64,000 nucleotides of DNA from Harmothoe impar. Its lineage: Eukaryota; Annelida; Polychaeta; Phyllodocida; Polynoidae. The position numbers and the translations under genes are program-made. This document shows positions 34,421 through 61,434 of the stretch, piece after piece. The notes beneath the pieces were generated by a model. The model saw only the letters and a program-made list of their open reading frames with translations, had not been told where the DNA came from and searched no databases. The number at the start of each line of letters is the position of its first letter. Positions within the stretch are counted from its first letter, which is position 1. The stretch is from the NCBI GenBank assembly GCA_947462335.1, contig OX381717.1:17971166-18035165 (forward strand). Reading direction: 5' to 3'.

Positions 34421-34597
34421 AATGTAGCAGAGGGATGGCCCGGCAGTGTGTTTACAGAGTAATCTGAGTCTGAGTCACCCACCAGGGCTTCTTGGCAATA
34501 TGTAACTCACATATATATCATATCAGGGCAAACTGTGAAACTAAATGAGACTTACCAGGGTAAGGCGATATTTGATCATAATTTTGCCGAGGGCACC

Positions 34598-34740
34598 ACG
34601 AGCGGTGCAGAGTATACCGACAGCATAGTGCTTTAATGCACTATGGCCTTTGGTTGTCATGATGCATGAATGCAACCATGGCGATGGTGAGTAACTCGCC
34701 AGTGCTGCATTCATGCATCACGACGACCCTATGTCCTTGA
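34598..34740. repeat. Palindromic MITE fragment (left half)
   Basis: GACAGCATAGTGCTTTAATG leads into a hairpin GATGCATGAATGCAACCATG...GTGCTGCATTCATGCATC. Confidence 0.65.
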
Positions 34741-35205
34741 TATACTCTCCCTCTGCTACATTATTAACCCTTTTAACCCCCCCCCCCCCCACCAACCCTA
34801 TATAAAGCCTAGAGTACCTGACCTCTCTCCACTCCAACTGTTGGTGGAAGGGCAGCAAATTGTGGACTCAATCCCTCCTTTGGTGTCATCATACACCTGT
34901 GTAGCGCCGACAAGTAACTCACTGGCATTACATCAGTACATCAGGTAGTCTCAGACACCAAACTATCCCAGGGGTGGGGGAGCGGGAGGGCCTGTTCCTG
35001 AGAGACTATGCAGTGTAGTTACAGAGTACTGTGAGTATGAGTCATCTACTCAGGGCGTCTTTACACTGGGGCTGTGAGCAGCTCGTGTGTCAGGTGGTGA
35101 GCTGCTCACCCGCTACATGCTGACTGTGTACTACGTGTTACATGTTACAGCATCAATCAGGCTCTGACTCACTCTCACAGAGCTACAGGGTATTGATTAT
35201 CTAAC

Positions 35206-35488
35206 CCTTTAAGGGCGGCATCATGTCTTAATGCATCATGCCCTTAGGGTCGGCATGATTCATGAAGGGACGGCATGATGCACCAATGCAGCACCGGTGA
35301 GTTACTTGTCAGGGCTGCATCGGTGCATCATGGAGACCCAAGGGCATGATGCATATAGGTATCATGCCGTCTTTACAGGGTTAACCATTATTTTTGTACT
35401 ACACACAGACACATACCACAGCTAGGGCTGCATTGGTGCATCATGACGACAAATGTCATGTTTTCGCGACATCTGTCCTTAAATGGTT
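35206..35488. repeat. Palindromic MITE copies bordering the Polinton-derived insert
   Basis: A copy runs from AACCCTTTAAGGGCGGCATC to GCCGTCTTTACAGGGTTAA (35,206-35,390). A second, truncated one at 35,405-35,488 ends CTGTCCTTAAATGGTTC, only a few bases before the CCCACA target site. Confidence 0.7.
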
Positions 35489-35492
35489 CAGG

Positions 35493-35498
35493 CCCACA
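35493..35498. other. 6-bp target-site duplication, left copy (CCCACA)
   Basis: CCCACA immediately precedes the element terminus AGTAGTAT and recurs immediately after the other terminus at 45,387-45,392. Six-base duplications are characteristic of Polinton integration. Confidence 0.85.
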
Positions 35499-35559
35499 AG
35501 TAGTATTGTATGTATCGGAACGGGACTATAGTTAAGTACTGTTTATTACTCAATCGACC

Positions 35560-35850
35560 TGCAGCCAATCAGAGGCCTCCCTTTTGGCGGGAAATTCAAA
35601 AGCAGCCAATGAGAGGCCTCCCTTTTGGCGGGAAATTCAAATAGGTCACGTGACCGGAAGTGACCTACTTCCGGTCACGTGACCTTTGGGCGGGAAATTC
35701 AAATAGGTCACGTGACCGGAAGTGACCTACTTAAGAGGGTCACGTGACCACCATGTTGGCGGGAAATTCAAATAGGTCACGTGACGGGAAGTGACCTACT
35801 TAAGGGGGTCACGTGACTACTAGGTTGGCTTTCAAAATAAGTCACTTGAG
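35560..35850. promoter_or_regulatory. Left-terminal array of E-box, ETS and CCAAT motifs
   Basis: Units of about 65-100 bp combine GGTCACGTGAC (USF-type E-box CACGTG), CCGGAAGTGACC (ETS core) and GGCGGGAAATTCAAA (E2F-like TTTCCCGCC inverted) with AGCCAATCAGAGGCCTCC (CCAAT). The E-box/ETS unit occurs several times, partly as a palindrome. Enhancer function is inferred from motif density. Confidence 0.5.
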
Positions 35851-36439
35851 ATTTTGATGGATAAATAAATTTAAAAAAAGAAAAAAAAAGCAAGCTGAAA
35901 AAGCTTGCTAAAAAATAATTTAAAAATGTGGCTCTTTTTTTCTAGGAGGGGGGGGGGGGGAGAGGGGCACTCTGGGGGGCACTCTTTAAGATGCATGGGG
36001 GGGGAGGGGGGGAGGGGGGGAGGGGGGAGGGGAGGGGCAGGGTTTTTTAAGAGTGAGACTCGCTTCTCTGCCCTCTCTAAAAGAGAGGGCAGAGAGGCGA
36101 GTCTACTTACTATGAAAGGTATCATGATCGCGTTTATGATGATGTGCATCTCTTGCTGGCTAGACTTTCAAGCAAATTTGCCAAAGTCCAGCCCGTTATT
36201 GAATGTCCGGCCTAGCCTGACCCTCAGTAGAACAGTCCTTGACCCATCTATTATAGTCTAGCAGCGCCTGACCCTTGTATGAGAGTAGTATTGGCGACAT
36301 TGGCTGACTCTGATATTTACCTGTGTGTACGGAGAGAGGAGAGGGTTCACAGCCACAGCTCTCTTAAGGCAAAGCTTGCGCTTATAGAGCGCTACTAGTG
36401 GAGGTCTGGATAAGGAAGCTATGGCGGTTGTCTTCAAAA

Positions 36440-36615
36440 AAAATAAAAAATAGCCATGGCGCATGTCGATGTCGCTTAATTATGCTCATATCTCATGTCG
36501 ATTTTAAGAATTGCTCATGTCACCTGTCACTATGTTTTTCAAGCTTCATGTCAAATGTCACTAGACCTCATGTCGAATGTCGATTCTAAGAAACAGATAT
36601 GTCACCATCTCGAAT
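36440..36615. repeat. Insertion of TCATGTCGATTTTAAGAA repeats in the left arm
   Basis: The segment between TAGCCATGGCGCATGTCG and the CTG tract consists of phrases such as CATGTCGATTTTAAGAATTG. It is absent from the matching place in the right arm (near 43,790). It is the inverse of the repeats at 31,780-31,960, so a host-dispersed repeat entered this arm after the arms diverged. Confidence 0.6.
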
Positions 36616-36631
36616 TTAGCGGTCCACATTG

Positions 36632-36632
36632 C

Positions 36633-36671
<39 letters not shown>

Positions 36672-37005
36672 TGCTGCTGATTTGCTGTTGCTGCTGCTGT
36701 CGGTGCTGCTGCTTGTGCTGCTCGTGCAGCTGCTGCAGCTGCTGACAGCTGCTGCTGCTTGTACTGCTCGTGCAGCTGCTGCAGTTGCTGACGATGTCAC
36801 GGATGCTGTTGACAGATGCTGCTGCTTGTGCTACTCGTGCAGCTGCTGCTGCTGCTGCTGCTGCTGCTGACGATGTCACGGATGCTGCTGACAGATGCTG
36901 CTGCTTGTGCTGCTTGTGCAGCTGCTGCAGCAGCTGCTGCTTGTGCTGATCGTGCTGCTGCTGCAGCAGCTGCTGCTGACAGATGCTGCTGCTTGTGCTG
37001 CACGA
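36632..37005. repeat. Expanded CTG/CAG compound repeat
   Basis: About 370 bp of interrupted (GCT)n with blocks GCTTGTGCTGCTCGTGCAGC and GACGATGTCACGGATGCTG. It lies 3' of the left-arm gene, so its transcript would carry CAG repeats. The right arm has only about 75 bp of the same motif (about 43,700-43,770). Confidence 0.85.
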
Positions 37006-37062
37006 GACCGAGTAGCCGCTATTACTAATGCTACTAATACTAGTATGAGAAAATACATTTAG

Positions 37063-37845
37063 TCAGTCGACTAAATCAAGGAGGTTTTCTGACTTCAGTG
37101 GATCGTTTAGCCATCGGCCACAGGCAAAACTTGAAACCATTTTATACATGGGACAATTGGCAGAGTCGAAACATGTTGGTACGACGGGGTCGATCATGTT
37201 CATCATCAGTTCAGGCAAAGGAAGTGTGTCGACAGCCCGCGAAAACTTCATGTCCGGATGTTTCAACACAACACTTTTTATCACACTCACACAGCTGCTT
37301 TGAAGAGTGAATCCTTGACCAAACTTGAGCTTTTCCAACACAGCTTTGGCCTCCTTCTGTGCAGTAAGGGATCTCTCTTTCGGGGTCATCGCAGTGCTGG
37401 CTAGCATGTCCTCAAAGTCTTTAACATAATGTTCCAACGGGCTACAAATGATGTACTCCAGATCATCGTCCGCATATGTCGTCTCCTCGCACCATACTTC
37501 TTTTGTTTCGAATTCCGTCATTTTCTGAACAATCTCCTCGTGAGTGCGTTGCATATATCGAAGCTTCTTCAAAGACCAGATAACTTGTATGCCGAACGCT
37601 GAAAAACCTGAAGGAATTTCACCACTACAGTCACGCCAACTATACGGAGCTAAGAAAAATAGCTCCAACAAAATTTTCTCCCTCTGTCCAAATGAAACTA
37701 CTTCCGTTCCGATGAAGTTGAAGCATGCTTCTATCCATTGCTCCTTGGTGACGTCCTTCCAATGTTTCTTTACCTCACATGCATCATAGGGCACTGTTTC
37801 TCTTCTTGCTTCTAGTGGGAGTTGCTTTTTCTTTCTTGGACTCAT
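37063..37845 (-). CDS. Unknown 260-residue protein, left-arm copy
   Basis: The start is chosen at MSPRKKKQLPLEARRET because this Met is shared by both arm copies; an upstream in-frame ATG at 37,920 would add 25 residues. The product is unrecognised: a basic start, then mainly predicted helical sequence (HWKDVTKEQWIEACFNFIG; REKILLELFFLAPYSW), an acidic stretch (ETTYADDDLE) and a C-terminal FACGRWLNDPL. There are no membrane segments or catalytic motifs. It differs from the right-arm copy by scattered substitutions and by indels that all keep frame, and both are exactly 260 residues. That pattern points to selection on the protein. A TATA-like TACATAAG lies upstream at 37,981-37,988. Absent a match, roles such as accessory or host-interaction factor are guesses. 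Confidence 0.75.
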   Translation of the reverse strand: MSPRKKKQLPLEARRETVPYDACEVKKHWKDVTKEQWIEACFNFIGTEVVSFGQREKILLELFFLAPYSWRDCSGEIPSGFSAFGIQVIWSLKKLRYMQRTHEEIVQKMTEFETKEVWCEETTYADDDLEYIICSPLEHYVKDFEDMLASTAMTPKERSLTAQKEAKAVLEKLKFGQGFTLQSSCVSVIKSVVLKHPDMKFSRAVDTLPLPELMMNMIDPVVPTCFDSANCPMYKMVSSFACGRWLNDPLKSENLLDLVD

Positions 37846-38534
37846 TTGGAGAGTTTCGATGCTCTGTAGCGTCGACACTTCGATAAGAAAAGAAGCTGTA
37901 AAGGTAGAAATAACCCTCATAACATGCTGAGCGAGCGTGGAGTGGACGATGCTACGATGAGTGAGAGCAGCGTTTCACTCCTTATGTACCCTGTCCTAGA
38001 TAATCCTCTTAAACAGCTGAAAAGACTCTCTCAGTACAGAGTCTCTACTCAATTAAGTGATCTGTTAAGTAAGTTTTCACATGCTACTTGACTACTGCAG
38101 GGGGGTTTAGACTTAAGCAGCTTAGTGCACACACGTGTCTGTTAGAAAGCTACCTGCACACCTGTCTTCCTTTTTCACTAGTATTTACCCCTTGCCGACT
38201 AATAAGGCACCTATACACGTGTCAGCCTCCTTATATACGTCATTCTTCCTCTCGAGAGGAAGAAGTGTGTCTCTTCGTTTTTTTTGTTTAAGAAGTGAGG
38301 GTCTTTAAGATCACGTGCCTGGAAGCGACTTGATGAAGCAAGTGACTAGAAGCGACGACGTCACATGCTTTTAATGAGGTGATCAGCTGTGACTGGCGGC
38401 GGCGGCGGCGGTGGCAGCGACGGTGGTGCTGGTGGTGGTGGTAGTAGACGTTACTGTGGTCAAAGGTGCTATGGTTTTTTTCCAACAGAAATCAGAGCTT
38501 TTATACAGAGGGAGTTTAATCCTATTTCCAACAG

Positions 38535-39096
38535 CACCCCAGCTGTCCAGCAGCCGCCCCGCTCCGTAAGAGCTTCTTAAGAGCTTAGATGACGAGGGGC
38601 GTGTCATCATCATCTTTGGTGGCCAGCTGAAAATGGTGTTTTTTCTTTATCCATTAGCCTTACCTCCTACTCCCTACCTGAGGACGACTCTCTCCCCCTT
38701 TAGCATTCATTGTAACAAACGTCAGAGGTCAGGTGAAAATCTGATTTTCATGCACAGCCTTAGTCAGCTGTCACTCCTATTGAACTAGCTAGCCGCCGCC
38801 GGCCGGTCTACTCACCCCAGCTGTCCAGCAGCCGCTCCGCTCCGTAAGAGCTTCTTAAGAGCTTAGATGCCGAGGGGTATGTCATCGCCATCTGTGGTGG
38901 CCAGCTGAAAATGGTGTTTTTTTTCCTTATCCATTAGCCTTACCTCCTACCCCCTACCTGAGGACAACTCTCTCCCCCTTTGGCATTCATTGTAACAAAC
39001 GTCAGAGGTCAGGTGAAAATCGGATTTTCATGCACAGCCTTAGTCAGCTGTCACCCCTATTGAACTAGCCAGCCGCCGCCGGCCAGTCTACTCACC
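38535..39096 (+). repeat. Tandem duplication, 278-bp period
   Basis: Two copies, highly similar, begin near CCCCAGCTGTCCAGCAGCCG and end CCGGTCTACTCACC or CCAGTCTACTCACC. Each includes AAGAGCTTCTTAAGAGCTTA, an inverted pair around TTCTTAA. Confidence 0.85.
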
Positions 39097-39250
39097 ACGG
39101 CAGGAGGCGGTGATTTTTTTTTGTTTTACACTTAAGTCGCTCACCACATGCACACGACTCTACTCACAGACAGACACTCCCGTCTTAGGGGGTCCTGCTT
39201 CACACTACACGCCTCCTGTAGTTTTTTTGTATACACACTCTAAGCTCATG

Positions 39251-39608
39251 ACTGCTTAATCCTTTATACAGCTAATGCGCGTTGAATTAGTACAGTCGGT
39301 ACACCGCCCGCTCATGGCAGTCCATCTCTCAAAAAAAAAAGAGGGAGGGGGGAAAGAGATCCAGCTGAAAACGTCATGACTTATGTCTTTTGTTTCTCTT
39401 TGGGAATGTCCGCCGGTCAGCTGGCGGCAGCAACTGCTTAATCCTTTATACAGCTAACGCACGTTGAATTGCTGAACAAGGCAGTAAGTAGCTTAGCTCG
39501 TGTCAGTCGATCTCTCAAAGGGGAAAGGGATCCAGCTGAAAACGTCATGCCTTATGACTTTTTGTTTCTCTTTGTGAATGGTCACCGGTCAGCCGGCGGC
39601 AGCTGAAG
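39251..39608 (+). repeat. Tandem duplication, about 182-bp period
   Basis: Both copies start ACTGCTTAATCCTTTATACA and end in GGTCAGC.GGCGGCAGC. The second copy runs up to the promoter of the death-domain gene. Confidence 0.8.
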
Positions 39609-39646
39609 AGAGCTGTAAGTAGCTTAGCTCTAGAAGCGAGAAGGAG

Positions 39647-39712
39647 TATATAAGAGGCCTGGAAACACCCGTTCACTCACTCAGTCTTTTGCTGCTCTCT
39701 ACAGGCACCACC
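39647..39712 (+). promoter_or_regulatory. TATA promoter and short leader of the death-domain gene
   Basis: TATATAAG sits at 39,647-39,654. An initiator-like CACTCACTCAGTC lies about 30 bp downstream, and the ATG at 39,713 follows in good context (CACCACCATGA). The leader would be only about 35 nt. Confidence 0.65.
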
Positions 39713-40169
39713 ATGAGCAAAACACAACAACTACTGTCGTCCAAGGATCTAATCGAGTTCAAGAACAAGAAGAATACGCAGAACGGTGATCGTTTACTGT
39801 CAGCGTCTCCTCTTGCTACTGAAATTGAGACTACCGCCGCAACCGCTTGGTCTTATCACCCTCCCGCTGTAGCGAGCGCACACAGCAGTAGTAGCGACGT
39901 TGTTACACTCGCGACGGTTGTTGCTGCTGAGCACACTGCTGCTGCTGCTGCTGCGCCTGCTGCGGCTGCTAGTGATCCTCGTGCTGCTAGTGCTGCTGCT
40001 ACTGCTGCTGCTGCTGCTGTTGCTGCTGCCGCGCCTGTTACTGCTGTGCCTGCTGCTGCTGCTGCTGCCACGCCTGTTACTGCTGCGCTTGCTGAGGCGG
40101 CTGTGCCTGCTGCTGCTGTGCCTGCTACTGCTGCGCCTGCTACTGCTGCACTTGCTAGCGCTGCGCTTG

Positions 40170-40219
<50 letters not shown>

Positions 40220-41278
40220 GCTACACCTCTTGCTGCGACTACCGCTACTAGTACTGACACGCAGTACGTTGCACAGAACCTCTCCACCGCTTCATCAACC
40301 GACGCCATCAACGCTGCTCGCGCTGAGACTTACAGCTATTCGGACACTCAGCCCCAGCAGCGCGTAGTAGACATACATGTCCTAAAGCAACAGGGTGAAA
40401 CAGAGAACGACGCTGACGACGAGGCGTACGAGGAACCCGAAGGGTCACGGGCGCACAGTCCGTTTTTCGACCTCATTTCCACTGGTAGTGCGTCCGGTCC
40501 GTGGCGCCTGCCCTCACCAATACCTTACGAAGTCATGTGGTTGCCCTGTTCCGACAACGAGTCGTCTGATACCAGCGCAGACGCTGCTCCTGTTATTGGT
40601 TCTGCTGCAGTAGTACCTGTATCATCATACTTCAAAGCAGAGCCGTTAGGATACTTGTCAGACGCTATGCTACTGAAAATAAGTGGTAAGTTGCCGACAT
40701 CAGATTACATACGGTTAGGTTCATTCCTTGAAGTGAACTTGAAGGATATGGGATATCTCAGTTGTGAGACAAGTGTCATAACTCAAGCTAGAGAAATGTT
40801 CACTACTTGGTACCAGAAAAGTTGTACTAGTAGGTGGAAGGACCTAGCCACCGCCTTGGAAGAATCTTACCGTATGGACCTCATCAAATTCTCACGTGAG
40901 TACATGGACAAGCATGACATGTGGGATGGCTTAGAGAGTGGAGACATGGAGTGGAAAGTGCAGAAATATTTCTCTCTTTTAGCTGAGCTCTGCCCTAGAG
41001 ACTGGAAGACCATAGGGATCTACTTAGGGTTGACTTCTCATGAAGTAACTTCCATCTCTCAACCTGTGCCTTCTGACAGGACTGTGAAGAACCCTGTGTA
41101 TGAAGTGCTGAAAGCTTGGAAGTACAACGAGACGTCTGAGCCTATGGCTCTGATGAAAGTGTTGGAAGACTACATGGGACGCGGCGACGTCGCAATGTAT
41201 GTTCAAGGGTTGTATGCAGCTGTACCCAAAGAAATAAAAGTGAGCTGTGACACTCCAGTGTTGACGACTCTCGTCTGA
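39713..41278 (+). CDS. Element-encoded protein with Ala-rich tract and two death-domain-like folds
   Basis: 521 residues from the ATG in CACCACCATGA context, just after a TATA promoter; single exon. Residues 1-65 are Ser/Thr-rich. Residues about 70-176 are a poly-alanine tract encoded mostly by GCT runs with Pro/Thr interruptions. An acidic segment (ENDADDEAYEEPEG) follows. Residues about 319-400 resemble a death domain (SDYIRLGSFLEVNLKDMGYL ... WKDLATALEES). Residues about 416-501 form a clearer one (LLAELCPRDWKTIGIYLGLT, then VYEVLKAWKYN and LMKVLEDYMGRGDV), with the W...LG...V.....L..W spacing typical of the fold. Death domains assemble apoptotic and innate-immune complexes (FADD, MyD88, PIDD types) by homotypic binding. 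A mobile-element or virus copy could act as a decoy or adaptor. That role, and the domain call itself, are inferences from pattern. Confidence 0.75.
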
Positions 41279-41444
41279 TCCCTGCAGTAAGATGGACATC
41301 TGTTGAAATCGATCCTACACTACAGACGTCTTTCACTATGCTAATAGCATCGTGTGGTAAGAGGCGTCTAGTATTCGAAGTGATAAACAACGTTTATTTT
41401 TTTAATATTTGGTAAATAAGTGAAAAAACAAAAAAAAGAAAAAC

Positions 41445-42480
41445 ATGCCGCAGGACGTTTGCGAAAAGTGTTTCAAAATTTTTAAAAGACCGTACAATCA
41501 CGAGTGACCCGTAGAAAAATGAAGAACGATACCTAAGTTTTGCCCTCTATGCAGCGATGTCGGCTAGCGTCGCATACGACTTTCCGGGGTAGGAGGGGCA
41601 GCGTACGTCAGAGAATCCGACGCAGATTCCGACCCCTTGTTAGACCGAGTTTAAAAATCACATAAACGAGAACGTCAAAGTCATCGAGAAAGCTGTGCTA
41701 GAAGTTTACCGACCAACCTTAGCGAAGTTACATGTAGCGATAGGTGAAGCTCTCCTGCTAGAGGAAGCGACATTCACCCCTTCTCCAGGCGGCTTCGCTG
41801 CAGCTCACACCAGACAACCGTTAGTTCAACTGAAGAAGCGGCTTCTGAGATACATCCGTCAAGCTCCAGTCGTACGCTTCAACTCGGAGAGTTACGACTT
41901 GAACCTGATCAAAAAATACGCCTTCACTCGTTATTTGCCTCCGGAGACCGAAGAAACCAACAATTCAGCGTCATAAAGAGAAGCAATTAATAGTTGACGT
42001 AGTAGTCAACTTTTTTAGCACTTGGTTACAGCTACGCGAATTATTTGCGAGCTTTCACTACAAACGAAGAGAAAGGTTGCTTTACTTACGAATGGATGAC
42101 GTATACCAAGAAACTAGTAAACAAAAAACCCCTGCCACCGAGATCGACTTTTGACAGCGACCTGACGGGCGTCAAAATGGCCGAAATCCGACTACGCCAC
42201 ATGTCAGAAAGTTTAGTATGACAAGAAGAAGCAAACTATGACAGATTACTTGATCCACTACAACAACGAAGACGTCAAATCTTTCATAGAAGCTTTTTGA
42301 AAAAATCACGCTATTTTTTTCCAACATAGCAGCATTGTCATGTTGAAAGACGCCATCTCTCTCGCCAGTTTGACTTTACAAGACCTCTTCCAAAAAACCT
42401 ATAAGCTGTGTTCACAACGTTCCCTCCGTTCGACGCCGTCCTCCACGCTCTGATCAAAGAAAATGTAGTCAGTGGTCCTT
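41445..42480 (+). pseudogene. Decayed protein-primed DNA polymerase B (exonuclease domain remains)
   Basis: A broken gene with stops and frame changes. 41,445-41,504 encodes a Cys-pair zinc-finger-like start (CEKCFKIF) that ends at a TGA. About 41,660-41,976 is open in one frame and contains VVRFNSESYDLNLIKKY, matching the ExoII-type motif (N..YD) of Polinton/adintovirus pPolB. About 42,020-42,215, in another frame, contains KGCFTYEWMTYTKKL and LPPRSTF. About 42,230-42,480 resumes with HYNNEDVKSFIEAF, then breaks again. The polymerase palm (motifs A-C) and later parts are absent. The fragments keep their ancestral order, so the gene decayed in place. In intact relatives this enzyme replicates the element from a protein primer. 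Confidence 0.7.
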
Positions 42481-42688
42481 CCATCATCTTCCATAGATTT
42501 CACGAGAAAGAGTGTATAGGTGTCTTATAAGTCGGCAGAGGGTGAATACTAGTGAAAAAAGGAAGGCGCGTGTGCAAGTAGCTTTTTCTAACAGACATGT
42601 GTGTAAACTAAGTCTAAACCCACCTGCGGTAGAAGCTCTGTACTTAGAGAGTCTTTTCAGCCGTTTAAGAGGCTTATCTAGGACAGGG

Positions 42689-42787
42689 TACATAAGGAGT
42701 GAAACGCCCCTGTCACCAGTCACACTTTCTCCACCCGCCCTTCATCTTCGTAGCATCGTCCACTCTACGCTCGCTCAGCACGTTACG
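42689..42787 (+). promoter_or_regulatory. Putative TATA promoter of the right-arm gene
   Basis: TACATAAG at 42,689-42,696 is followed by an initiator-like CACCAGTCACAC about 25 bp on. The same arrangement is found inverted in the left arm (37,981-37,988). Inference from motif and conservation between arms. Confidence 0.45.
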
Positions 42788-42856
42788 ATGGTTAGTTCTG
42801 CTATTTTCTTTGTTTATGAAAGTGTTGACGCTACAGAGCATCGAAACCCTCTCGAA

Positions 42857-43639
42857 ATGAGTCCAAGAAAGAAAAAGCAACTCCCACTTGAAGCAAGAAG
42901 AGAAACGGTGCCCTATGATGCATGTGAGGTAAAGAAACATTGGAAGGACGTCACCAAGGAGCAATGGATAGAAGCATGCTTCAACTTCATCGGAACAGTA
43001 GTTTCATTTGGACAGAGGGAGAAGATTTTGTTAGAGCTATTTTTCTTAGCTCCGTATACTTGGCCTGACTGTGGTGAAATTCCTTCAAGTTTGTCAGTCT
43101 TCGCCATACAAGTTATCAACTCCTTGAAGGAGCTTCGATATATGCAAGGCACTCAGGAGGAGATTGTCAAGAAAATGACGGAATTCGAAACAGGCGAAGA
43201 CACAATATGGTGCGAGGAGACGACATATGCGGACGATGATCTGGAGTCCATCATTTGTAGTCCGTTGGAACATTATGTTAAAGACTTTGAGGACATGCTA
43301 GACAGCACTGAGATGAACCCGAAAGAGAGATCCCTTACTGCACAGAAAGAGGCTAAAGCTGTGTTGGAAAAGCACAAGTTTGGTCAAGGATTCACTCTTC
43401 AAAGCAGCTGTGTGAGTGTGATAAAAAGTCTTGTGTTGAAACATTCAGACATGAAGTTTTCGCGTGCTGTCGACACACTTCCTTTGCCTGAACTGATGAT
43501 GAACATGATCGACCCTATGGTACCAACACGTTTCGACTCTGCCAATTGTCCCATGTATAAAATGGTTTCAAGTTTTGCCCGTGGCCGATGGCTAAACGAT
43601 CCACTGAAGTCAGAAAACCTCCTTGATTTAATCAATTGA
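42857..43639 (+). CDS. Unknown 260-residue protein, right-arm copy
   Basis: The start is the conserved MSPRKKKQLPLEARRET; an in-frame ATG at 42,788 would add 23 residues that are poorly conserved in the other arm. The product is 260 residues, like the left-arm copy. Compared with it, this copy lacks one residue after FNFIGT and one after DC, and gains two at FETGEDTIWCEE, so the lengths compensate. The segments VKHW.DVT-like start, the LELFFLAPY helix and the LPLPELMMNMIDP stretch are fully conserved. It is mostly helical, with no recognised domain. Because the neighbouring polymerase gene is wrecked while both copies remain open, the protein was probably under selection longer, or gene conversion between the arms kept it intact. 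Confidence 0.75.
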   Translation: MSPRKKKQLPLEARRETVPYDACEVKKHWKDVTKEQWIEACFNFIGTVVSFGQREKILLELFFLAPYTWPDCGEIPSSLSVFAIQVINSLKELRYMQGTQEEIVKKMTEFETGEDTIWCEETTYADDDLESIICSPLEHYVKDFEDMLDSTEMNPKERSLTAQKEAKAVLEKHKFGQGFTLQSSCVSVIKSLVLKHSDMKFSRAVDTLPLPELMMNMIDPMVPTRFDSANCPMYKMVSSFARGRWLNDPLKSENLLDLIN

Positions 43640-44443
43640 CTAAATGTATTTTCTCATACTAGTATTAGTAGCATTAGTAATAGCGGCTACTCAGTCTCGT
43701 GCAGCACAAGCAGCAGTATCTGTCAGCGGCATCCGTGACATCGTCAGCAGCAGCAGCAGCAGCTGCACAAGCAAAAGACAAACACTGTAGTCTCCTCATC
43801 CAGACCTCCGCTAGTAGCGCTCTATAAGCGCAAGCAGTGGCTGTGAACCCCCTCCTCCCGCCGTACACACGGGTAAATATCAGAGTCGGCCAATGTCGCC
43901 AATACTACTCTCATACAAGGGTCAGGCGCTGCTGACCTATAATAGATGAGTCAAGGACTATTCTACTGAGGGTCAGGCTACGCCGGAAATTCAATAACAA
44001 GCTGGACTTTGGCAAATTTGCTTGAAAGTCTGGCCAGCAAGAGTCCGGCATACTCTCCCAAGAGTTCAGCATTGCCAGACTATGGCATGAGGATCCCGCA
44101 TGGTCAGACTTTCAAAAGCAAGTTTGCCAAACTCCAGCTTTTTATTGAATGTCCGGCGTAGCCTGACCCTCACTAGAATAGCCCTTGACCCATCTATTAT
44201 AGGCCGGCCGTGCCTGACCTTTGTCTGAAGGTAGAATTAGCGCTATTGGGTGCCTCTGATGTTTGCCTGTGTGTAGTCAAACCTCGCCTGAGAGAGACAT
44301 ACTTCAGAAAGAAAAGAAAGCGGCGTGAGAAGGTGACGGGATCCCAAGTGTCAACCCTAAGACTTACATTTGCTACGATCAAATCAGCGGCACCGGTGAA
44401 AGAAAATCTCAAAAAAAGTGTACAGAAGTAGTCGTCTTCTTAA

Positions 44444-44623
44444 ATGTTTTCGAAAACGAAAAACTCTCCTTGCGGTAAATATAAATTTCAAAAGTGGTAC
44501 GAACCAAAAATGGCCACTTACACCATAGAGAAAGATGACGTGCGCTACTTGTATTATAAGCGTCGCGTGCATTCTAACGGTGTGACAACGAGTCCTTTAA
44601 AATATGAAAAAGTGTGTTATTGA
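44444..44623 (+). CDS. Small open frame in the right arm (59 codons)
   Basis: An ATG opens a Lys/Tyr-rich peptide (KYKFQKWYEPKMATYTI ... DDVRYLYYKRRVH) ending in TGA at 44,621. A/T-rich sequence with AATAAAAAAATAAAATAAAA follows, as expected for a polyadenylation region. There is no counterpart in the left arm and no recognised family. It may be a real short gene, the last exon of a lost one or chance. Confidence 0.35.
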   Translation: MFSKTKNSPCGKYKFQKWYEPKMATYTIEKDDVRYLYYKRRVHSNGVTTSPLKYEKVCY

Positions 44624-44819
44624 TTGATTGAGCGCATCTTTTCAAAAATAGAGTGTTATTAGAATTGAAAAAAAGAAAATAAAAAAATAAAATAAAATTA
44701 TTGTTGTGTTTATTTTCATACGTCTTCTTTTATTAGTAAGTAAAACAAATATAACAATTAACTAGCGTGTCCTCTTAAAGTGACACTTCCTCCGGTCGCT
44801 GCTGAATCGTCTAATTAAG

Positions 44820-45310
44820 GTATGTGTCGTCGTCACTTCTAGTCACGTGACTCATCAGGTCACTTCCGGTCGCGTGATCCTAAAATCGATCACTTCCTAA
44901 ACAAAATTAAATTAAGAGACACATTTCTTCATGACCCAACCAATCAGAGGTCTCCATTTGACCAGAAGTAGGCCCCTCATTTGCATAAATGGGTCACTTC
45001 CGGTGTACCAGCCAATCAGAAGCCTCTAACTAAGTCAAGGTCGCTTGACGTCACTTCCGGTATGCCCTTATATGTACATGTGAAGGTCACATGACGTCAC
45101 TTCCGGTATGCCCTTATATGGGCGTGTGACGTCACATGACGTCACTTCCGGTATGCCCTTATATGGGCGTGTGACGTCACTTCCGGTCAAATGGAAGCCT
45201 CTGATTGGCTGAGTCATGACCTTGACCTCTAACTAGGTCAAGGTCACGTGACGTCACTTCCGGTATGCCCTTATATGGGCATGTGACGTCACTTCCGGTC
45301 AAATGGAGGC
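44820..45310. promoter_or_regulatory. Right-terminal array of CRE, ETS and CArG motifs
   Basis: Units of about 45-60 bp read TGACGTCACTTCCGGTATG followed by CCCTTATATGGGCGTG. Each joins a consensus CRE (TGACGTCA), an ETS core (ACTTCCGG) and, in three units, a perfect CArG box CCTTATATGG (45,112-45,121; 45,157-45,166; 45,269-45,278). CCAAT-type CTGATTGGCTG is repeated. CRE plus CArG/ETS is the layout of immediate-early serum-response enhancers; function is inferred. Confidence 0.55.
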
Positions 45311-45386
45311 CTCTGATTGGCTGCATGTCGATTGAGTAATAAACAGTACTTAACTATAGTCCCGTTCCGATACATACTATACTACT

Positions 45387-45392
45387 CCCACA
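45387..45392. other. 6-bp target-site duplication, right copy (CCCACA)
   Basis: It directly follows the terminus ATACTACT and is identical to 35,493-35,498. Confidence 0.85.
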
Positions 45393-45426
45393 TGATGCTC
45401 AAAGAGCTATACCCTCTGCCGTCGTG

Positions 45427-45535
45427 GTACATCGACCATGTAGGGTCAGCACAATGCATGAATGCTGCCCTGGCGAGTGGCGTGTTACTCGCCCGATCTA
45501 CATTCATGCATCATGCCCCCCAAAAGGCAACAATG
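45427..45535. repeat. Palindromic MITE fragment
   Basis: One hairpin: CAATGCATGAATGCTGCCCT with TACATTCATGCATCATGCC, plus a left spacer with CATGTAGGGTCAGC. Confidence 0.6.
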
Positions 45536-46317
45536 ATACACTCAAAAAATAAACTTGTCTCCAGACTCTTCAAAGTGACGGTCATAAAATACTCAAGTCA
45601 AAAACTCGTCTATGTGAAAAGGAAGCGGGTCGTCTAGCTGGAGATAGAAGACCCACTTGGTATGTGCCAGCCCAAAACCCGACATTTGCCAGCTCTAGAT
45701 TCTATTTGTTGAATAGTAACCTCATGCCTGTCTTGATTGGGTGTAGAAATCTACATGATTGGTTGGAATAAGCACAATCAATAGAACTACCCCTTCTGTC
45801 CGTAACTCTCAGACAGCCCTGGCTATGATACAGGAGTTCCCATCGAGAACCAACCAGAGCCATGACTTGCAGTATTCTGAGGGAAGAGCAGACAGGGCAG
45901 TGCGCCAGGTAGTACCCAGGTAGGGCAGCACAGCTGATGGCTGACTGCTGGGGGGGGGGGGGGGGGGTAAGCTGGGAGCTGGGGTTTCCCCAGGTGTCTG
46001 TGCTATACCCACACTGTGGGGGACCCCAGGCAGCCTGTGACTAAAACATGACCTGGTACTGCAAGAAATAACATGCTGTATTGCTACTCCATACTTATTG
46101 CATATTGATGTTACAAAGTATGCATCACACCAATGACTTGTGCAGGCATTTGTCAGTTTGGTCAAATATCTGATGGCAATCTATGCATACTCAGGTACCT
46201 AATGTGATTTGATTTGACTTGAATTTCTTTCATTTATCCTGGCAGGAATGTATGGCCTGGTAGACCGTGTTGATACAATGGACATTGCAATTTTATCTTG
46301 TCTAAATTCTTTTGTCC

Positions 46318-46354
46318 CCCCCCCCCCACCCCGTTTTTGAAAATGATCACTCCC
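46318..46354. repeat. PIF/Harbinger-type MITE fragment (right end only)
   Basis: A C run followed by TTTTTGAAAATGATCACTCCC and TTA matches the right end of the GGGAGTGGTC family. Confidence 0.6.
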
Positions 46355-46549
46355 TTACATCCCCAGGGTACTAGTAATAACTAGGAACGCAGACACGTGT
46401 CCATTGCTATATGCAGCTGACATGCTCTATGACCTGGGTAATACATTTCCTCTCCTTAATAAAGCAATGACGAGCACGTCCCCAACGACTCGCCCCCTTA
46501 GTGTCTGAGAAAATACAGCACTAGAGGAATTAGGTCACAGCCGGAATAC

Positions 46550-56571: not shown

Positions 56572-56853
56572 ATGGTGTGGCAATGTTGAGGCAACATTGC
56601 GGGTCATTACTGGCCGCCCGCCAGACCTCAGCGTCCACTGTCCCCCCTCCTAACATCTGACCAATACCCTCCACCAATCACAGCGCACCTCACCTTCACC
56701 CCGCGCCCTCTCCCCGTCACACGGCCTCAGTCAACGTCCGCTCCTCCTATATACAGGTTGTGTTGTGACGATGCTCGTGCAAGCACCGCCATTTTGAACT
56801 TTTCACTCTGTGAATTTTAGACAAAGTTTTATACAAAGTTAATACAGTTCACT

Positions 56854-58110
56854 ATGTCACAACCGGGAGATCTCCTGGACTACGACTCCAACATGTCGGC
56901 CTTCTCCGCGGCAGGCCAACACTCGGCCTCATACGACGACGGGGAGATAAACTTCAGCCGGCACCGACACCGGTCTGACAAAAGCCACATCTCCTCACTG
57001 TCACACTTCTCCAGAGCCTCAGCGTCTACGGGTGTGAGTACACAGTCGACCAGAGACAGGGTCAACAACCTCGAGTCTGCAATGACCACCATGTCGCGTC
57101 AATTTACACAGCTCATGTCCATGCTTCAAAAGGGACAGCGAAGCTCACACTCCGCACCACGTGACCACGCCACCCGCGAAAGGACTCGCGGGCCGTCCAC
57201 CACTTCGCGCCGCCCGGCGACCGACCCGCCGGCCTCCCGGGGAGCCCGCCCGAGGCCGCCTCCTGCTGTCAACCCCCAGCATGACAGCACACCGCCTTCA
57301 CACAACACACACCGGCGCTCTCAGCTGGACGTGGCGTCGGTGGAGAACTACGTCGCCATACAACTCCTCATGGAGCACTTCGACGTGCCCAGGACCTCCG
57401 GTAAGACACTCGCTGCAGATATATTTGTCACAGATCCTAAAGTCAAGCCATACATGTACTTAGAAAGGCCCGGCCTAAACACGTTGCAAAAGAAACTTGA
57501 CGCCCGTCAGGACATCCCACACTCAGAGTACATTGAGTGCTACCTACGTATGCTTGATGACAAAAGGTCACAACAAATGCCGCACATAGAGCACCACATC
57601 AAACACCTGTTAGACTTACACAGCTTTAAAGCTAACTGGCACACCACAAGGGCATGGAGTCAGTCTATGTTCGATAAGTTTGAGACAGGGTGCTGGACAT
57701 GGGACGACTACCTTGGTGCTATACACAGGGACCGCACCGACCGCGCCTTTGAGGCGCGGGAGGCATACAGCAGGGACTCCTCCAGTGCCTCAGATCTCCC
57801 ATGCCCCGACTTCAATGGTAGGGGTTGCCTTCATGACAAACACCACGATTCCGCACAGGGAAAGATGGTACACTACTGCAGTTACTGCTTTAGTGTTGTG
57901 GGGGGATGGAAGAAATTCGGTCACCCGCTCAGGTCGTGTAGACAGAAACCCGGTGCCATGCAACAACAACAGCAACAACAACACCCACCACAACATGCAC
58001 AAGGCGCCCAACACCCGGCCGCCCAACATCCCTACATCCCACACCCACAACAACAGCCTGCATTGAGACCACAGGCCCCACCATTCGCCCCAGCAAAAAA
58101 CTACAACTGA
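56854..58110 (+). CDS. gag: Gag-like protein of the DIRS-order element
   Basis: 418 residues. The start follows a short leader and TATA-like box. The N-terminal part is Ser/His-rich, with a short coiled coil (DRVNNLESAMTTMSRQFTQL) around residues 66-95. A Pro/Arg-rich linker follows, then a helical core (residues about 155-300). A Cys/His cluster then appears at residues 317-362 (C317, C325, H327, H340, C342, C345, H357, C362), a zinc-finger-like arrangement. A Gln/His/Pro tail follows. By analogy it would package element RNA and form particles. Sequence similarity to retroviral Gag is not evident; the call rests on position before RT and on the zinc-binding pattern. Confidence 0.75.
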   Translation: MSQPGDLLDYDSNMSAFSAAGQHSASYDDGEINFSRHRHRSDKSHISSLSHFSRASASTGVSTQSTRDRVNNLESAMTTMSRQFTQLMSMLQKGQRSSHSAPRDHATRERTRGPSTTSRRPATDPPASRGARPRPPPAVNPQHDSTPPSHNTHRRSQLDVASVENYVAIQLLMEHFDVPRTSGKTLAADIFVTDPKVKPYMYLERPGLNTLQKKLDARQDIPHSEYIECYLRMLDDKRSQQMPHIEHHIKHLLDLHSFKANWHTTRAWSQSMFDKFETGCWTWDDYLGAIHRDRTDRAFEAREAYSRDSSSASDLPCPDFNGRGCLHDKHHDSAQGKMVHYCSYCFSVVGGWKKFGHPLRSCRQKPGAMQQQQQQQHPPQHAQGAQHPAAQHPYIPHPQQQPALRPQAPPFAPAKNYN

Positions 58111-58196
58111 GCTCCCTCCCCGCAACAGGTGAGGAAGGGGGCGATGATCTCTCTACACAGGTCAGTACGACTGAAAAATGTATAAACTATATTGCT

Positions 58197-61100
58197 ATGC
58201 ATCCATCGTATGTTTACAATGTTGACAGCACGCGGCACGTGTCCCCCACACGCGCCAATACGCCCCGGCTCGCCGCGGGGAATCCCCGGCCCGCGGCGCA
58301 TGACGTCACCGCCAGCCCCGGCCGTGTTGGTAAACACAACCACGTGGCGGCGCACGTGCTCCCTGGTGTTGATAAACATTGCCACGTGTTCCACCGCTCC
58401 GCAGATACACAGACACCGCGGGCGACACTGTCCTCCGCTGACACTGCCCCCATGGATGAGGGCTCCGCACGGGACTCATCAGCACGGGCACATGAACCTG
58501 TGGACACCCCCAGCCCCACAATTCATGCCCCTGTCACCAATACATGTACTAAAGCTATAACCAATATTTCTTCACACACAGATGGGGTGCAGCCGCTCAC
58601 CAACCCAGCCCGCCCACACTGTGTTAGCCAAAACTCCTTCCCCACATGTGTCCCGGATACCAATATCGACTTTGACATTATTAAACACATGTGTGAAAAT
58701 GACTTCATTGCAGAGGGCGTCGACATCTCCCCGGCAGCGTTTGCCCCACACAGGGTTACACACTGGCCGGCCACAACTGACGCCTGGCAGTCAATGGGCA
58801 AGGAGGAACAGGCTTTGGCGCAGATCTACTCCACAGTGAAGGCTACAGGTCTGCCCAACTGCCTCTCCGCCAGACTTGAGGTTCCTAGCAATCTTAATCT
58901 CCATGCATGGTCCGCCTATCTGGGTCATGACACACAGTACACCAGGTTACTGGACTACCTCTATTACGGATTTCCCCTTGGTTATATGGGCCCAGTGTCC
59001 GATAACAGAGGGGTCAACAATCATCCTAGCGGGGTAAACTTCCCCGACCATGTTGGTACTTTCTTGCAGGACGAGGTAAAACTGGGGGCACTCATCGGCC
59101 CCTTCACCCAGTCCCCTTTTGACAGGTGGCTACACGTCGCCCCCATCATGTCTAGGCCTAAGAGCAATGGTGTGGACAGGAGGATCATAACCGACCTCAC
59201 ACACCCGAGGGACAAGTCTATTAATTCATACATTTTCAGGAACACCGCCATGGGGGAGCTCAGAGAGCATGCACTCCCATCTGTAGACCACCTAGTTAAC
59301 CTACTCATCAATGCTGGCCCCAATGCACATGTCTTCTCACTTGATTTGGCCAGAGCTTATAAGAATCTGAGATGTGATCCACTAGACTTTCCCCTCCTAG
59401 GTATGACATGGAATGATGACCACTACATCGAGGTGTCGGTCCCCTTCGGCGCGCGTGCCAGCTCGGCACACATGCAGAGGGTGGCTGACGCCATAGTCGA
59501 CATCCTGGCCCGCGAAAACATCACAGCGCTCATGTACCTGGACGATCTGGTCGTGGTCGCAGCCGACATGCACACTGCTCAGGCCCATTATCAAAGGGTC
59601 AGGGCCCTATTCAAAGAACTAGGCCTACCTGAGGCATTGGACAAGGCCCAGCCCCCATCCAAAAAGGTTAGGTGGCTCGGTATAATTATTGATGCACAAA
59701 ACATGTCTCTTTCAATCCCACAGGACAAACTTGCTGAGGTCAAGGACGACATCAGCAAGGCAGCCTCCAAACGCAGCCTCAACAAGAAGGTCCTAGAATC
59801 AGTTGTTGGTAAAATGCTTTACGTGTGCAAATGTATTCCACCCGCTCGCCCCTTCATGTCCAGTCTACTAAAGGCCCTACGGGACCTTAAAGGCTGGTGG
59901 TGCCACGTCACCAAGGACATGAAATCTGACTTGTTGACATTCCATGAAATGTGTTCAGGTTGGAATGGTGTTGGCATGATTCCACCCCCAGACCCCACTA
60001 AGCAGATCTGGGTTGCCGCATGCCTCACCGGTGTGGGGGGCACCGAAGGGGTCAAGGCCTTCCGCCAACAGATCCCCACCCCACCTGAACAAGTACACAT
60101 AATTACTGAAATTGAAGCAATCAATGTTGTCATTGGCCTACACACTCTCCTCAAGGACACTGAAAAAGGTTCTCACGTCCTCATACATTGTGACAACCAG
60201 GCCACCGTCAGTGCACTGAGGTGGGGTAGGGCTAAAAACTGTATTCTCAATCAATGTTCCAGATCCGTGTGGGCCCTACAAGCCACCATGCAGATCCACC
60301 TCACATACGATTACATAAATACTGATGACAACTTTGTGGCCGATGCACTTAGCAGGTCACACCTCTCAAAGGCACACAAAGCACTAGCAGACGAAATAAT
60401 TGCCATTAACAATCTCAGTGAAACCGATGCTTGTATGTACTTTTTCAACAACATGTTTCCATCACTTGTTTACAGACAAAATGAGGAACACGCTGGCCGA
60501 GATGGCAGAGAAGCGCCAGGAGAGGGCGAGGGCACAAGGGACGTTCAAAAACCACAAGTCGGACGTGACCCAATTCCTCAGGTTCTGCCTCCAATTCGGG
60601 GTGGACCCTCTTCACCCGACAGCATACGACATCTGCATACTCATAGAATTCTACATGATGGGGGAAATCAGCCCGGCCACACTCAAGAACAAATTGGGTG
60701 CTATAAGGGGATATTTGACTCTGGCAGGGGGGTCCCTCACTGGGCCAACCAACTTCCGAGTGAAAAGGGCGGTGGACGCCGTAGAAAGAGACTCCAAATT
60801 CCAATCAAAACCCAAGCCGGCGATACCATTGCCTATACTTATCGCAGCACTGCAGGCAATCCCGGTGGACCTGGAAGGCAAGATAGTAAAGACAGCCCTC
60901 CTGACCATATATCATGCCGGCCTGCGGCAGTCAGAGGTGGCGCCACCTTCAGTCAACACATTCGACCCACACCGACACCTGTGCAGGGCCGACGTCAAGG
61001 TGGGTCGGGTAGTGAACATTGTCATAAAGCACGCAAAGAACCTGCAGAAATACAACCAGAGACGCTACATCACCTTACACCCAGCATCCAACAAGGAGAT

Positions 61101-61331
61101 GTGTCCTGTGTCTCACATAAAGGATGTGATCGAGGCCTGCCCCACCGACGATGCATTTCAACCCATGTACTGTTTCCCGGGGTCGACCACACCCATGCCG
61201 GTGACTCACCTACGGGCAGAATGGGAGAGGGCACTGTCACGAGTGGGGGTGGACCCAAAGACATTCAGCCTACACTCAATACGCAAGGCCGCCTCCACGG
61301 TGGCATTCACTCAGGGGTGCACAGAACTTGA
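58197..61331 (+). CDS. Reverse transcriptase-RNase H polyprotein of the DIRS-order element
   Basis: The open frame is 1,044 residues, starting at the first ATG after the Gag-like stop and in a different frame. An unstructured N-terminal part of about 180 residues is followed by RT: FDRWLHVAPIMSRPKSNG, motif A around SLDLARAYK (D383), and the catalytic YLDD box (447-450, MYLDDLVVVA). RNase H follows: WVAACLTGVGG (about 605-614), TEIEAINVV, HCDNQATVSAL and NTDDNFVADALSRS. In related elements the first RNase H motif carries an Asp where A607 stands here (VDACLTG type), so RNase H may be disabled or the position mis-sequenced. The frame stays open for about 285 further codons over the recombinase ORF. 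That tail has no recognisable domain and may be non-functional read-through. Confidence 0.9.
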   Translation: MHPSYVYNVDSTRHVSPTRANTPRLAAGNPRPAAHDVTASPGRVGKHNHVAAHVLPGVDKHCHVFHRSADTQTPRATLSSADTAPMDEGSARDSSARAHEPVDTPSPTIHAPVTNTCTKAITNISSHTDGVQPLTNPARPHCVSQNSFPTCVPDTNIDFDIIKHMCENDFIAEGVDISPAAFAPHRVTHWPATTDAWQSMGKEEQALAQIYSTVKATGLPNCLSARLEVPSNLNLHAWSAYLGHDTQYTRLLDYLYYGFPLGYMGPVSDNRGVNNHPSGVNFPDHVGTFLQDEVKLGALIGPFTQSPFDRWLHVAPIMSRPKSNGVDRRIITDLTHPRDKSINSYIFRNTAMGELREHALPSVDHLVNLLINAGPNAHVFSLDLARAYKNLRCDPLDFPLLGMTWNDDHYIEVSVPFGARASSAHMQRVADAIVDILARENITALMYLDDLVVVAADMHTAQAHYQRVRALFKELGLPEALDKAQPPSKKVRWLGIIIDAQNMSLSIPQDKLAEVKDDISKAASKRSLNKKVLESVVGKMLYVCKCIPPARPFMSSLLKALRDLKGWWCHVTKDMKSDLLTFHEMCSGWNGVGMIPPPDPTKQIWVAACLTGVGGTEGVKAFRQQIPTPPEQVHIITEIEAINVVIGLHTLLKDTEKGSHVLIHCDNQATVSALRWGRAKNCILNQCSRSVWALQATMQIHLTYDYINTDDNFVADALSRSHLSKAHKALADEIIAINNLSETDACMYFFNNMFPSLVYRQNEEHAGRDGREAPGEGEGTRDVQKPQVGRDPIPQVLPPIRGGPSSPDSIRHLHTHRILHDGGNQPGHTQEQIGCYKGIFDSGRGVPHWANQLPSEKGGGRRRKRLQIPIKTQAGDTIAYTYRSTAGNPGGPGRQDSKDSPPDHISCRPAAVRGGATFSQHIRPTPTPVQGRRQGGSGSEHCHKARKEPAEIQPETLHHLTPSIQQGDVSCVSHKGCDRGLPHRRCISTHVLFPGVDHTHAGDSPTGRMGEGTVTSGGGPKDIQPTLNTQGRLHGGIHSGVHRT

Positions 61332-61434
61332 GATCCAGCGCTTTGGGGGCTGGTCCTCCAAGGCCTACAAAACATATATAAACACTCAGGACTCACACAA
61401 GGTCAATAAGACACTTGCAAAATCAATGTCTTAA
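60481..61434 (+). CDS. Tyrosine recombinase of the DIRS-order element
   Basis: 317 residues from MRNTLAEMAEKRQ. The frame is open further upstream (another ATG at 60,427), but the chosen ATG directly follows a strong acceptor-like CATCACTTGTTTACAG, so expression from a spliced RNA is possible. The N-terminal SAM-like core-binding helices (residues about 15-95) precede the catalytic domain. R149 lies in HAGLRQSE, H265 and R268 in HSIRKAAST, W291 in GGWSS, and the nucleophile candidate Y299 in KTYIN. All expected catalytic residues are present. It would integrate the circular double-stranded cDNA by site-specific recombination without target duplication. The ORF overlaps the end of the RT-RNase H frame by about 850 bp. 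Confidence 0.9.
   Translation: MRNTLAEMAEKRQERARAQGTFKNHKSDVTQFLRFCLQFGVDPLHPTAYDICILIEFYMMGEISPATLKNKLGAIRGYLTLAGGSLTGPTNFRVKRAVDAVERDSKFQSKPKPAIPLPILIAALQAIPVDLEGKIVKTALLTIYHAGLRQSEVAPPSVNTFDPHRHLCRADVKVGRVVNIVIKHAKNLQKYNQRRYITLHPASNKEMCPVSHIKDVIEACPTDDAFQPMYCFPGSTTPMPVTHLRAEWERALSRVGVDPKTFSLHSIRKAASTVAFTQGCTELEIQRFGGWSSKAYKTYINTQDSHKVNKTLAKSMS

What the first reader, a model, noticed from the sequence alone, without database searches (positions are those of the whole stretch)
35499..45386. Shrunken Polinton carrying cargo genes in long inverted arms
Termini AG...CT, 6-bp duplication CCCACA and pPolB remains identify a Polinton. Core genes are gone or decayed, while a death-domain gene and two copies of an unknown gene stay open. 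Inverted arms of 2.7-2.9 kb with a gene inside each are unusual: Polinton terminal repeats are normally shorter and non-coding. This looks like a derivative lineage that keeps host-interaction cargo and drops replication genes.
Basis: partly seen in the sequence, partly recalled or inferred. Interest (0 to 1): 0.88.

Follow-up and report, generated by a model that had tools for sequence, protein, structure and literature searches.

The report
High-copy gutted Polinton with cargo genes
A ten-kilobase virus-like jumping element that has lost its own copying machinery but kept a cell-death-type gene and an unknown gene has spread to many places in this animal genome, probably by borrowing the machinery of intact relatives.

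Summary
The element is real: 35499-45386, (AGT)2//(ACT)2 ends, 86-bp terminal repeats, 6-bp duplication CCCACA. It is no lone relic. Its exact 33-bp left terminus occurs 1,396 times in the host genome (reversed control 0; several element forms together). Ten copies picked by an intact right-arm gene all have perfect, different 6-bp duplications; 9 of 10 repeat the window's order of parts at 96-99.9% identity, which refutes an assembly artefact. The arms are not one long repeat: unlike subterminal arrays separate the 86-bp repeats from inner inverted gene blocks. A one-arm form also exists. The left arm is diverged (left-right gene 94.9%, left-left 99.3%), so the window form looks like an end-exchange chimera that later amplified. 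It keeps a tandem death-domain gene and an unknown 260-codon gene; only a broken, probably PolB, remnant remains. Long open ORFs of the remnant's lineage abound, and one lies behind an end 99% identical over 208 bp to the one-arm form's. Best reading: a coding, non-autonomous Polinton derivative mobilised in trans, a new variant of a known kind. Helper identity, packaging and cargo function are unproven.

The parts
35493..35498 (.). left copy of 6-bp target-site duplication CCCACA
35499..35584 (+). left terminal inverted repeat, 86 bp, begins AGTAGTATTGTATG
   Evidence: exact 33-bp start found 1,396 times in the genome
35585..35850 (.). left subterminal array: 4 GGCGGGAA, 6 CACGTG (all within TCACGTGA), 3 CCGGAAGT sites in 35499-35850, unlike the right array
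   Evidence: site names E2F/E-box/ETS are recalled
36150..36434 (-). outer inverted block of left arm (partner 43775-44043, 86%)
36617..37000 (.). CTG-type repeat in left arm
36938..38218 (-). inner inverted block of left arm holding the gene (partner 42512-43773, 85%)
37063..37845 (-). left copy of unknown gene, 260 codons plus stop
   Evidence: open in 6 of 9 other two-arm copies
38211..38250 (.). junction of left arm to element body, present in 9 of 9 sampled two-arm copies and 0 of 4 one-arm loci
38259..38399 (-). displaced block shared with the right subterminal side 44789-44930 (78%)
39647..39685 (+). TATATAA box and TCAGT initiator-like motif ahead of the death-domain gene
   Evidence: the arthropod-type reading of TCAGT is recalled
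39713..41278 (+). 521-aa protein with alanine-rich N half and probable tandem death domains at about 40676-40900 and 40964-41203
41558..41562 (.). point where one-arm copy L039 carries 774 bp more of the probable polymerase remnant
41644..42400 (+). broken remnant of a probable protein-primed family B polymerase; longest open piece 41644-41976
   Evidence: identity likely, not proven
42512..43773 (+). inner inverted block of right arm
42857..43639 (+). right copy of unknown gene, 260 codons plus stop
   Evidence: 147 of 147 scored genome matches at 100% rounded identity without a stop
43775..44043 (+). outer inverted block of right arm
44830..45300 (.). right subterminal array: 7 TGACGTCA, 8 CCGGAAGT and 2 CACGTG sites in 44830-45386
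45301..45386 (-). right terminal inverted repeat
45387..45392 (.). right copy of target-site duplication CCCACA

Best explanation
A non-autonomous but coding derivative of a Polinton/Maverick. Shown: it inserted as a unit at many sites with 6-bp duplications; it exists in a one-arm and a two-arm form, and the sampled two-arm copies are 96-99.9% alike; no frame in it is long enough for an intact polymerase, integrase or capsid gene once the cargo frames are set aside; long open ORFs of its polymerase-remnant lineage are in the same genome, and one lies 5.7 kb behind an end that is 99% identical over 208 bp to the one-arm form's. Inferred: polymerase and integrase of such relatives act in trans on the shared ends; the two-arm form arose when the left end of a one-arm element was replaced by the inverted gene-bearing right end of a diverged sister element (end exchange between terminal repeats during strand-displacement replication), and that chimera then amplified; the death-domain protein interferes with host death-fold signalling, and the 260-aa protein has an unknown accessory role.
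For: Ends and duplications: 10 of 10 fetched copies, the window and L051. Copy number: 1,396 exact termini, control 0. Order of parts repeated in 9 of 10. Open death-domain frame in 9 of 10. One-arm form. Arm ages: left-left 99.3%, right-right 99.7% (biased upward, the right genes were picked for identity), left-right 94.9% mean; right gene 99.2% and left gene 93.8% to the one-arm gene. Candidate helpers: 117 of 117 scored matches to P0014 at 76-78% identity, 37 of them in open frames of 1,371-1,382 aa; 2 of 36 on contig C1 have the exact terminus in the same orientation 5,716 and 5,672 bp upstream, with frames of 1,367 and 1,044 aa; 208-bp end match of the first. A separate lineage in the genome holds open integrase-like (rve 4.2e-9) and ATPase-like (Pox_A32 8.3e-5, 22.6 bits against a cut-off of 22.8) ORFs downstream of a 1,189-codon PolB frame.
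Against: 34 of the 36 listed polymerase-lineage ORFs on C1 have no exact copy of this terminus within 20 kb (the list of termini is capped at 100 places and ends at 120.2 Mb, so one of the 34 lies beyond it), and the one-base end variant could not be searched. The 5.7 kb between terminus and ORF in the two good cases was not read, so a nested piece is not excluded. By eye, none of the long ORFs is among the PF03175 matches listed; polymerase identity is sub-threshold. No integrase was looked for in that same lineage. Cargo selection since the burst is not shown. Copies were picked on an intact right gene, which biases the sample.
Confidence: 0.78

Rival explanations
1. Ordinary dead Polinton remnants: a decayed family spread some time ago, with open frames left by chance and no current role.
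For: Polymerase remnant in frames of at most 254 codons in all 150 scored copies of 7,550 candidates; 1 of 10 copies has a broken death-domain gene and 3 of 9 a broken left gene; variable codons show little constraint.
Against: 99.6-99.8% identity over kilobases between the window and copy L033/L034, perfect duplications, death-domain frame open in 9 of 10; nine relatives of the unknown gene at 46-90% aa identity in public proteins, organism not shown.
Confidence: 0.17
2. The arms are a simple recent inverted duplication of the element's own right arm inside this copy, or an assembly artefact.
For: Same gene in opposite orientation; the two main blocks are in the same order.
Against: Found in 9 of 10 other loci; left arm 5-7% diverged in the gene and 28-32% in the upstream part (gapped) from both right-arm types; left genes are closer to each other than to right genes.
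Confidence: 0.06
3. A virus satellite: the one- and two-arm forms are packaged in particles of the intact relatives and travel between animals, with the death-domain gene as a host-control gene.
For: Shared end with a polymerase-lineage element; element size about 9-10 kb; cargo of host-signalling type; relatives of the unknown gene in other public records, organism not shown.
Against: No packaging signal, particle or between-species identity was tested; no relatives in viral contigs.
Confidence: 0.22

Closest known systems
Maverick/Polinton elements of vertebrates (PMC8097293, passages seen)
   Same: (AGT)2//(ACT)2 ends, terminal inverted repeats, perfect 6-bp target duplications
   Different: those called intact there encode eight conserved ORFs (seven in Xenopus tropicalis); here no intact core gene, two other genes kept, high copy number
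Adintoviruses (PMC11071296, passages seen)
   Same: Polinton-like animal viruses; [quoted passage not shown]
   Different: all are said to encode an integrase; a death domain is not mentioned (0 hits for 'death' in that text)
Tlr elements as a once-suggested non-autonomous derivative of Polintons (PMC4028283, one passage seen)
   Same: the idea of a non-autonomous Polinton derivative is already in print
   Different: that paper argues that Tlr diverged anciently and is not such a derivative
Non-autonomous DNA transposons in general (recalled)
   Same: shared termini with autonomous elements, trans-mobilisation, high copy number
   Different: this one is large and coding; most such derivatives are short and non-coding
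Adenovirus variants with inverted terminal duplications (recalled; none of the 8 papers listed, of 12, is on them by title)
   Same: protein-primed linear replicon in which one end is replaced by an inverted copy of the other
   Different: here the outermost subterminal arrays stay unlike and the acquired end is from a diverged sister

Membership tests
Polinton/Maverick | (AGT)n//(ACT)n termini with terminal inverted repeats | tested here: met
Polinton/Maverick | 6-bp target-site duplication | tested here: met
   window, 10 of 10 fetched copies and L051
Polinton/Maverick | intact protein-primed PolB | tested here: not met
   only a broken remnant, itself identified at sub-threshold level
Polinton/Maverick | rve-type integrase | tested here: not met
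   no such match among seven frames scanned; of the 31 frames of 80 codons or more overlapping 34500-46500, none outside the cargo frames exceeds 164 codons, against 332 for the integrase-like ORF of L054; introns and the unscanned short frames were not tested
Polinton/Maverick | packaging ATPase, protease, capsid proteins | tested here: not met
   as above; by frame length and seven Pfam scans only, no structure-level search
non-autonomous derivative of a Polinton | shares termini with a relative that bears the core gene | tested here: inconclusive
   one relative's end read for 208 bp, 2 of 36 by geometry; interior not read, 34 of 36 without the exact end nearby
death-domain proteins | Pfam Death above cut-off | tested here: met
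   46 bits against 22.6 for the stretch holding both; the first domain alone 19.8 bits, under the cut-off
virus satellite | packaged by a helper's particle | not testable with these tools
   needs particle DNA

The most novel reading that the evidence does not exclude
An animal counterpart of phage satellites: a Polinton-derived lineage that threw away its replication, integration and capsid genes, kept and duplicated host-interaction genes, and spreads by using the enzymes and perhaps the particles of intact Polintons that share its ends; end exchange between sister elements is its way of gaining genes.
Probability: 0.25. Interest if true: 0.85.

Novelty: new variant of a known kind. Interest (0 to 1): 0.62.

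Why it matters
Polintons are mostly described as self-sufficient virus-like elements. A recently amplified, gene-keeping derivative beside relatives of the same lineage, one with a matching end, makes trans-mobilisation, gene capture at the ends and possible satellite behaviour testable in one genome, and offers a death-domain gene riding on a virus-like element.

Tried and rejected
Searching the 86-bp terminus by similarity found nothing, not even the window itself, probably because its words are too common; an exact pattern count was used instead. Relatives in viral contigs: none. Structure models of the unknown protein and of the death-domain part were too poor to use (mean pLDDT 41 and 37), so no fold search was run. 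PDB profile search of the unknown family: three weak matches, E 0.13 or worse. The 1,189-codon PolB family was tried as helper: the 4.5 kb read downstream of one copy shows no shared end or cargo, so it is only evidence that other Polinton lineages with open core genes exist here. The exonuclease pieces of three other polymerase lineages were compared with the remnant: no match. Counts of the two-arm junction, of a one-arm-specific sequence and of the one-base terminus variant, and searches with P0009 and P0013, were asked and never answered. First-look candidate numbers (2,580; 7,550; 5,372; 695) are not copy counts and are not used as such. Literature: searches (Polinton with death domain; adintovirus with death domain) listed 0 papers; (Polinton with nonautonomous) listed 15 of 16 papers. 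Only passages were seen of PMC6431247, PMC11071296, PMC8097293, PMC9341512, PMC4028283 and PMC8363768; none showed such an element. That is no proof that none is in print.
Full report
OBSERVATION. The element runs from 35499 to 45386 (9,888 bp). It starts AGTAGTAT and ends ATACTACT, has 86-bp inverted ends at 96.5% identity and a 6-bp duplication CCCACA. These are the (AGT)2//(ACT)2 ends and the 6-bp duplications reported for vertebrate Mavericks (PMC8097293, passages seen). Inside lie a 521-codon frame with probable tandem death domains, two inverted copies of an unknown 260-codon gene and a broken remnant that is probably PolB.

ARMS. The inverted arms are not one repeat. After 86 bp the two ends differ: the left one has GGCGGGAA and CACGTG arrays, the right one TGACGTCA and CCGGAAGT arrays (left against right: GGCGGGAA 4 and 0, CACGTG 6 and 2, TGACGTCA 0 and 7, CCGGAAGT 3 and 8; means of 500 simulated sequences of the same neighbour-base make-up below 0.2 for each). 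Further in, blocks of 285 and 1,281 bp pair with the other side at 85-86%. A block at 38259-38399, on the inner side of the left arm, pairs with one near the right terminus, so the two sides are not in the same order throughout.

COPIES. The unknown protein found 147 scored matches out of 2,580 first-look candidates, all 147 printed at 100% rounded identity and without a stop. I fetched 10 of these 147, chosen to include three with odd frame lengths. All 10 have perfect 6-bp duplications, all different from one another and from the window's. Nine have the window's order of parts at 96-99.9% identity; of these, L036 lacks 68 bp and L042 and L048 carry about 440 bp more repeat in the right arm. 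The exact 33-bp left terminus occurs 710 times forward and 686 in reverse; the reversed control 0. This count mixes forms: the one-arm copy L039 and the polymerase-bearing relative below have it too, and it can occur at both ends (8 facing pairs among the 100 places listed). Of 21 matches on contig C1, 17 have that terminus upstream in the same orientation, 16 of them at 7.2-7.5 kb as in the window; 4 have none.

ONE-ARM FORM. One of the 10 copies (L039/L040) lacks the left arm: its left end joins the body at window 38243, and it keeps 774 bp more of the remnant. A remnant search found 150 scored copies of 7,550 candidates, all in frames of at most 254 codons. Three stretches chosen from these 150 gave one complete one-arm element of 9,054 bp with duplication CACGGC (L051), one with its right end but cut at the left by the fetch (L052), and a tandem array of internal parts (L053). 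The right-arm gene of the window is 99.2% identical to the L051 gene, the left-arm gene 93.8%. Across copies 10 left genes agree at 99.3% on average, 32 right genes at 99.7% (30 of them picked for identity), left with right at 94.9%. So the left arm is older than the burst and comes from a diverged sister. End exchange is my inference.

HELPERS. PF03175 has 129 matches in this genome (83 of 695 candidates scored); 28 cover model positions 12-462, 23 of these in open frames of 1,177 or 1,189 codons. Downstream of one of these lie open ORFs with an integrase core domain (4.2e-9) and an A32-type ATPase (8.3e-5, just under the cut-off), but no shared end or cargo in the 4.5 kb read. The remnant's own lineage was found through P0014 (59% identical over 72% of the query): 117 scored matches of 5,372 candidates, 76-78% identical to P0014, 37 of them in open frames of 1,371-1,382 codons. 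On C1, 2 of 36 of these have the exact terminus in the same orientation 5,716 and 5,672 bp upstream (frames of 1,367 and 1,044 codons), and none of the 36 has a listed one elsewhere within 20 kb; the list ends at 120.2 Mb, short of one of the 36. The first 208 bp of the first of those ends match the one-arm form's left end at 99.0% and 98.1% (L051 and L039), and the window's left end at 98.8% over the 86-bp repeat. Thus a relative with a long open ORF shares these ends in the one case read. For 34 of 36 the end is unknown. The polymerase identity of this lineage is likely by motifs (recalled) and one sub-threshold match (0.0047); a profile comparison did not confirm it (E 0.35), although the aligned motifs are in register, and by eye its ORFs are not in the PF03175 list.

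CARGO. The death-domain frame is open in 9 of 10 copies; the left unknown gene in 6 of 9. The unknown gene has nine relatives at 46-90% identity in public proteins, with no Pfam match in the four frames of the family scanned. One protein, P0013, shares a stretch of the death-domain protein (56% over 17% of the query part) but ends in a PC4-like domain (0.00031, under the cut-off), which may mean that this gene position swaps its C-terminal domain. Purifying selection is weak in the tests I could make.

VERDICT. A coding, recently amplified (by identity; no rate is known here), Polinton-derived non-autonomous element in two forms. Trans-mobilisation is the best reading and is supported by one shared end and one repeated geometry, not proven. 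I do not file it as an autonomous Polinton, since core genes were tested and not met.

Noticed in passing
window 56821-61434: DIRS-type retroelement: reverse transcriptase (1.2e-15) and tyrosine recombinase (1e-6) in overlapping open frames.
   Followed up: partly
window 34662-34745, 35202-35383, 45427-45513: Dispersed, partly palindromic repeats with GCATTCATGCATCA-type cores on both sides of the insertion.
   Followed up: no
L053 (C2:100736001-100746000): Internal parts of the one-arm element repeated at about 6.14 kb spacing; three remnant matches at that spacing.
   Followed up: partly
P0013: Only relative found of the death-domain protein's middle region; its C-terminal end is PC4-like: possible domain swapping at one gene position.
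   Followed up: partly
P0009 and P0010: Two diverged relatives of the unknown gene, both listed with a longest contig of 91,410 bp, have the same last 40 or so residues: perhaps paired copies with gene conversion; whether it is one contig was not checked.
   Followed up: no
window 35499-35850 and 44830-45386: Dense arrays of sites that look like host transcription-factor sites, different at the two ends, reminiscent of adenovirus ends (recalled).
   Followed up: partly
L045 1-1160 and L043 8105-10000: Further partial copies close beside two full copies: a second left end head-to-head and a second arm.
   Followed up: no
P0021: Polymerase-remnant relative listed with a NADAR domain.
   Followed up: no
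G000: Many open polymerase-like frames of several lineages in one animal genome.
   Followed up: partly
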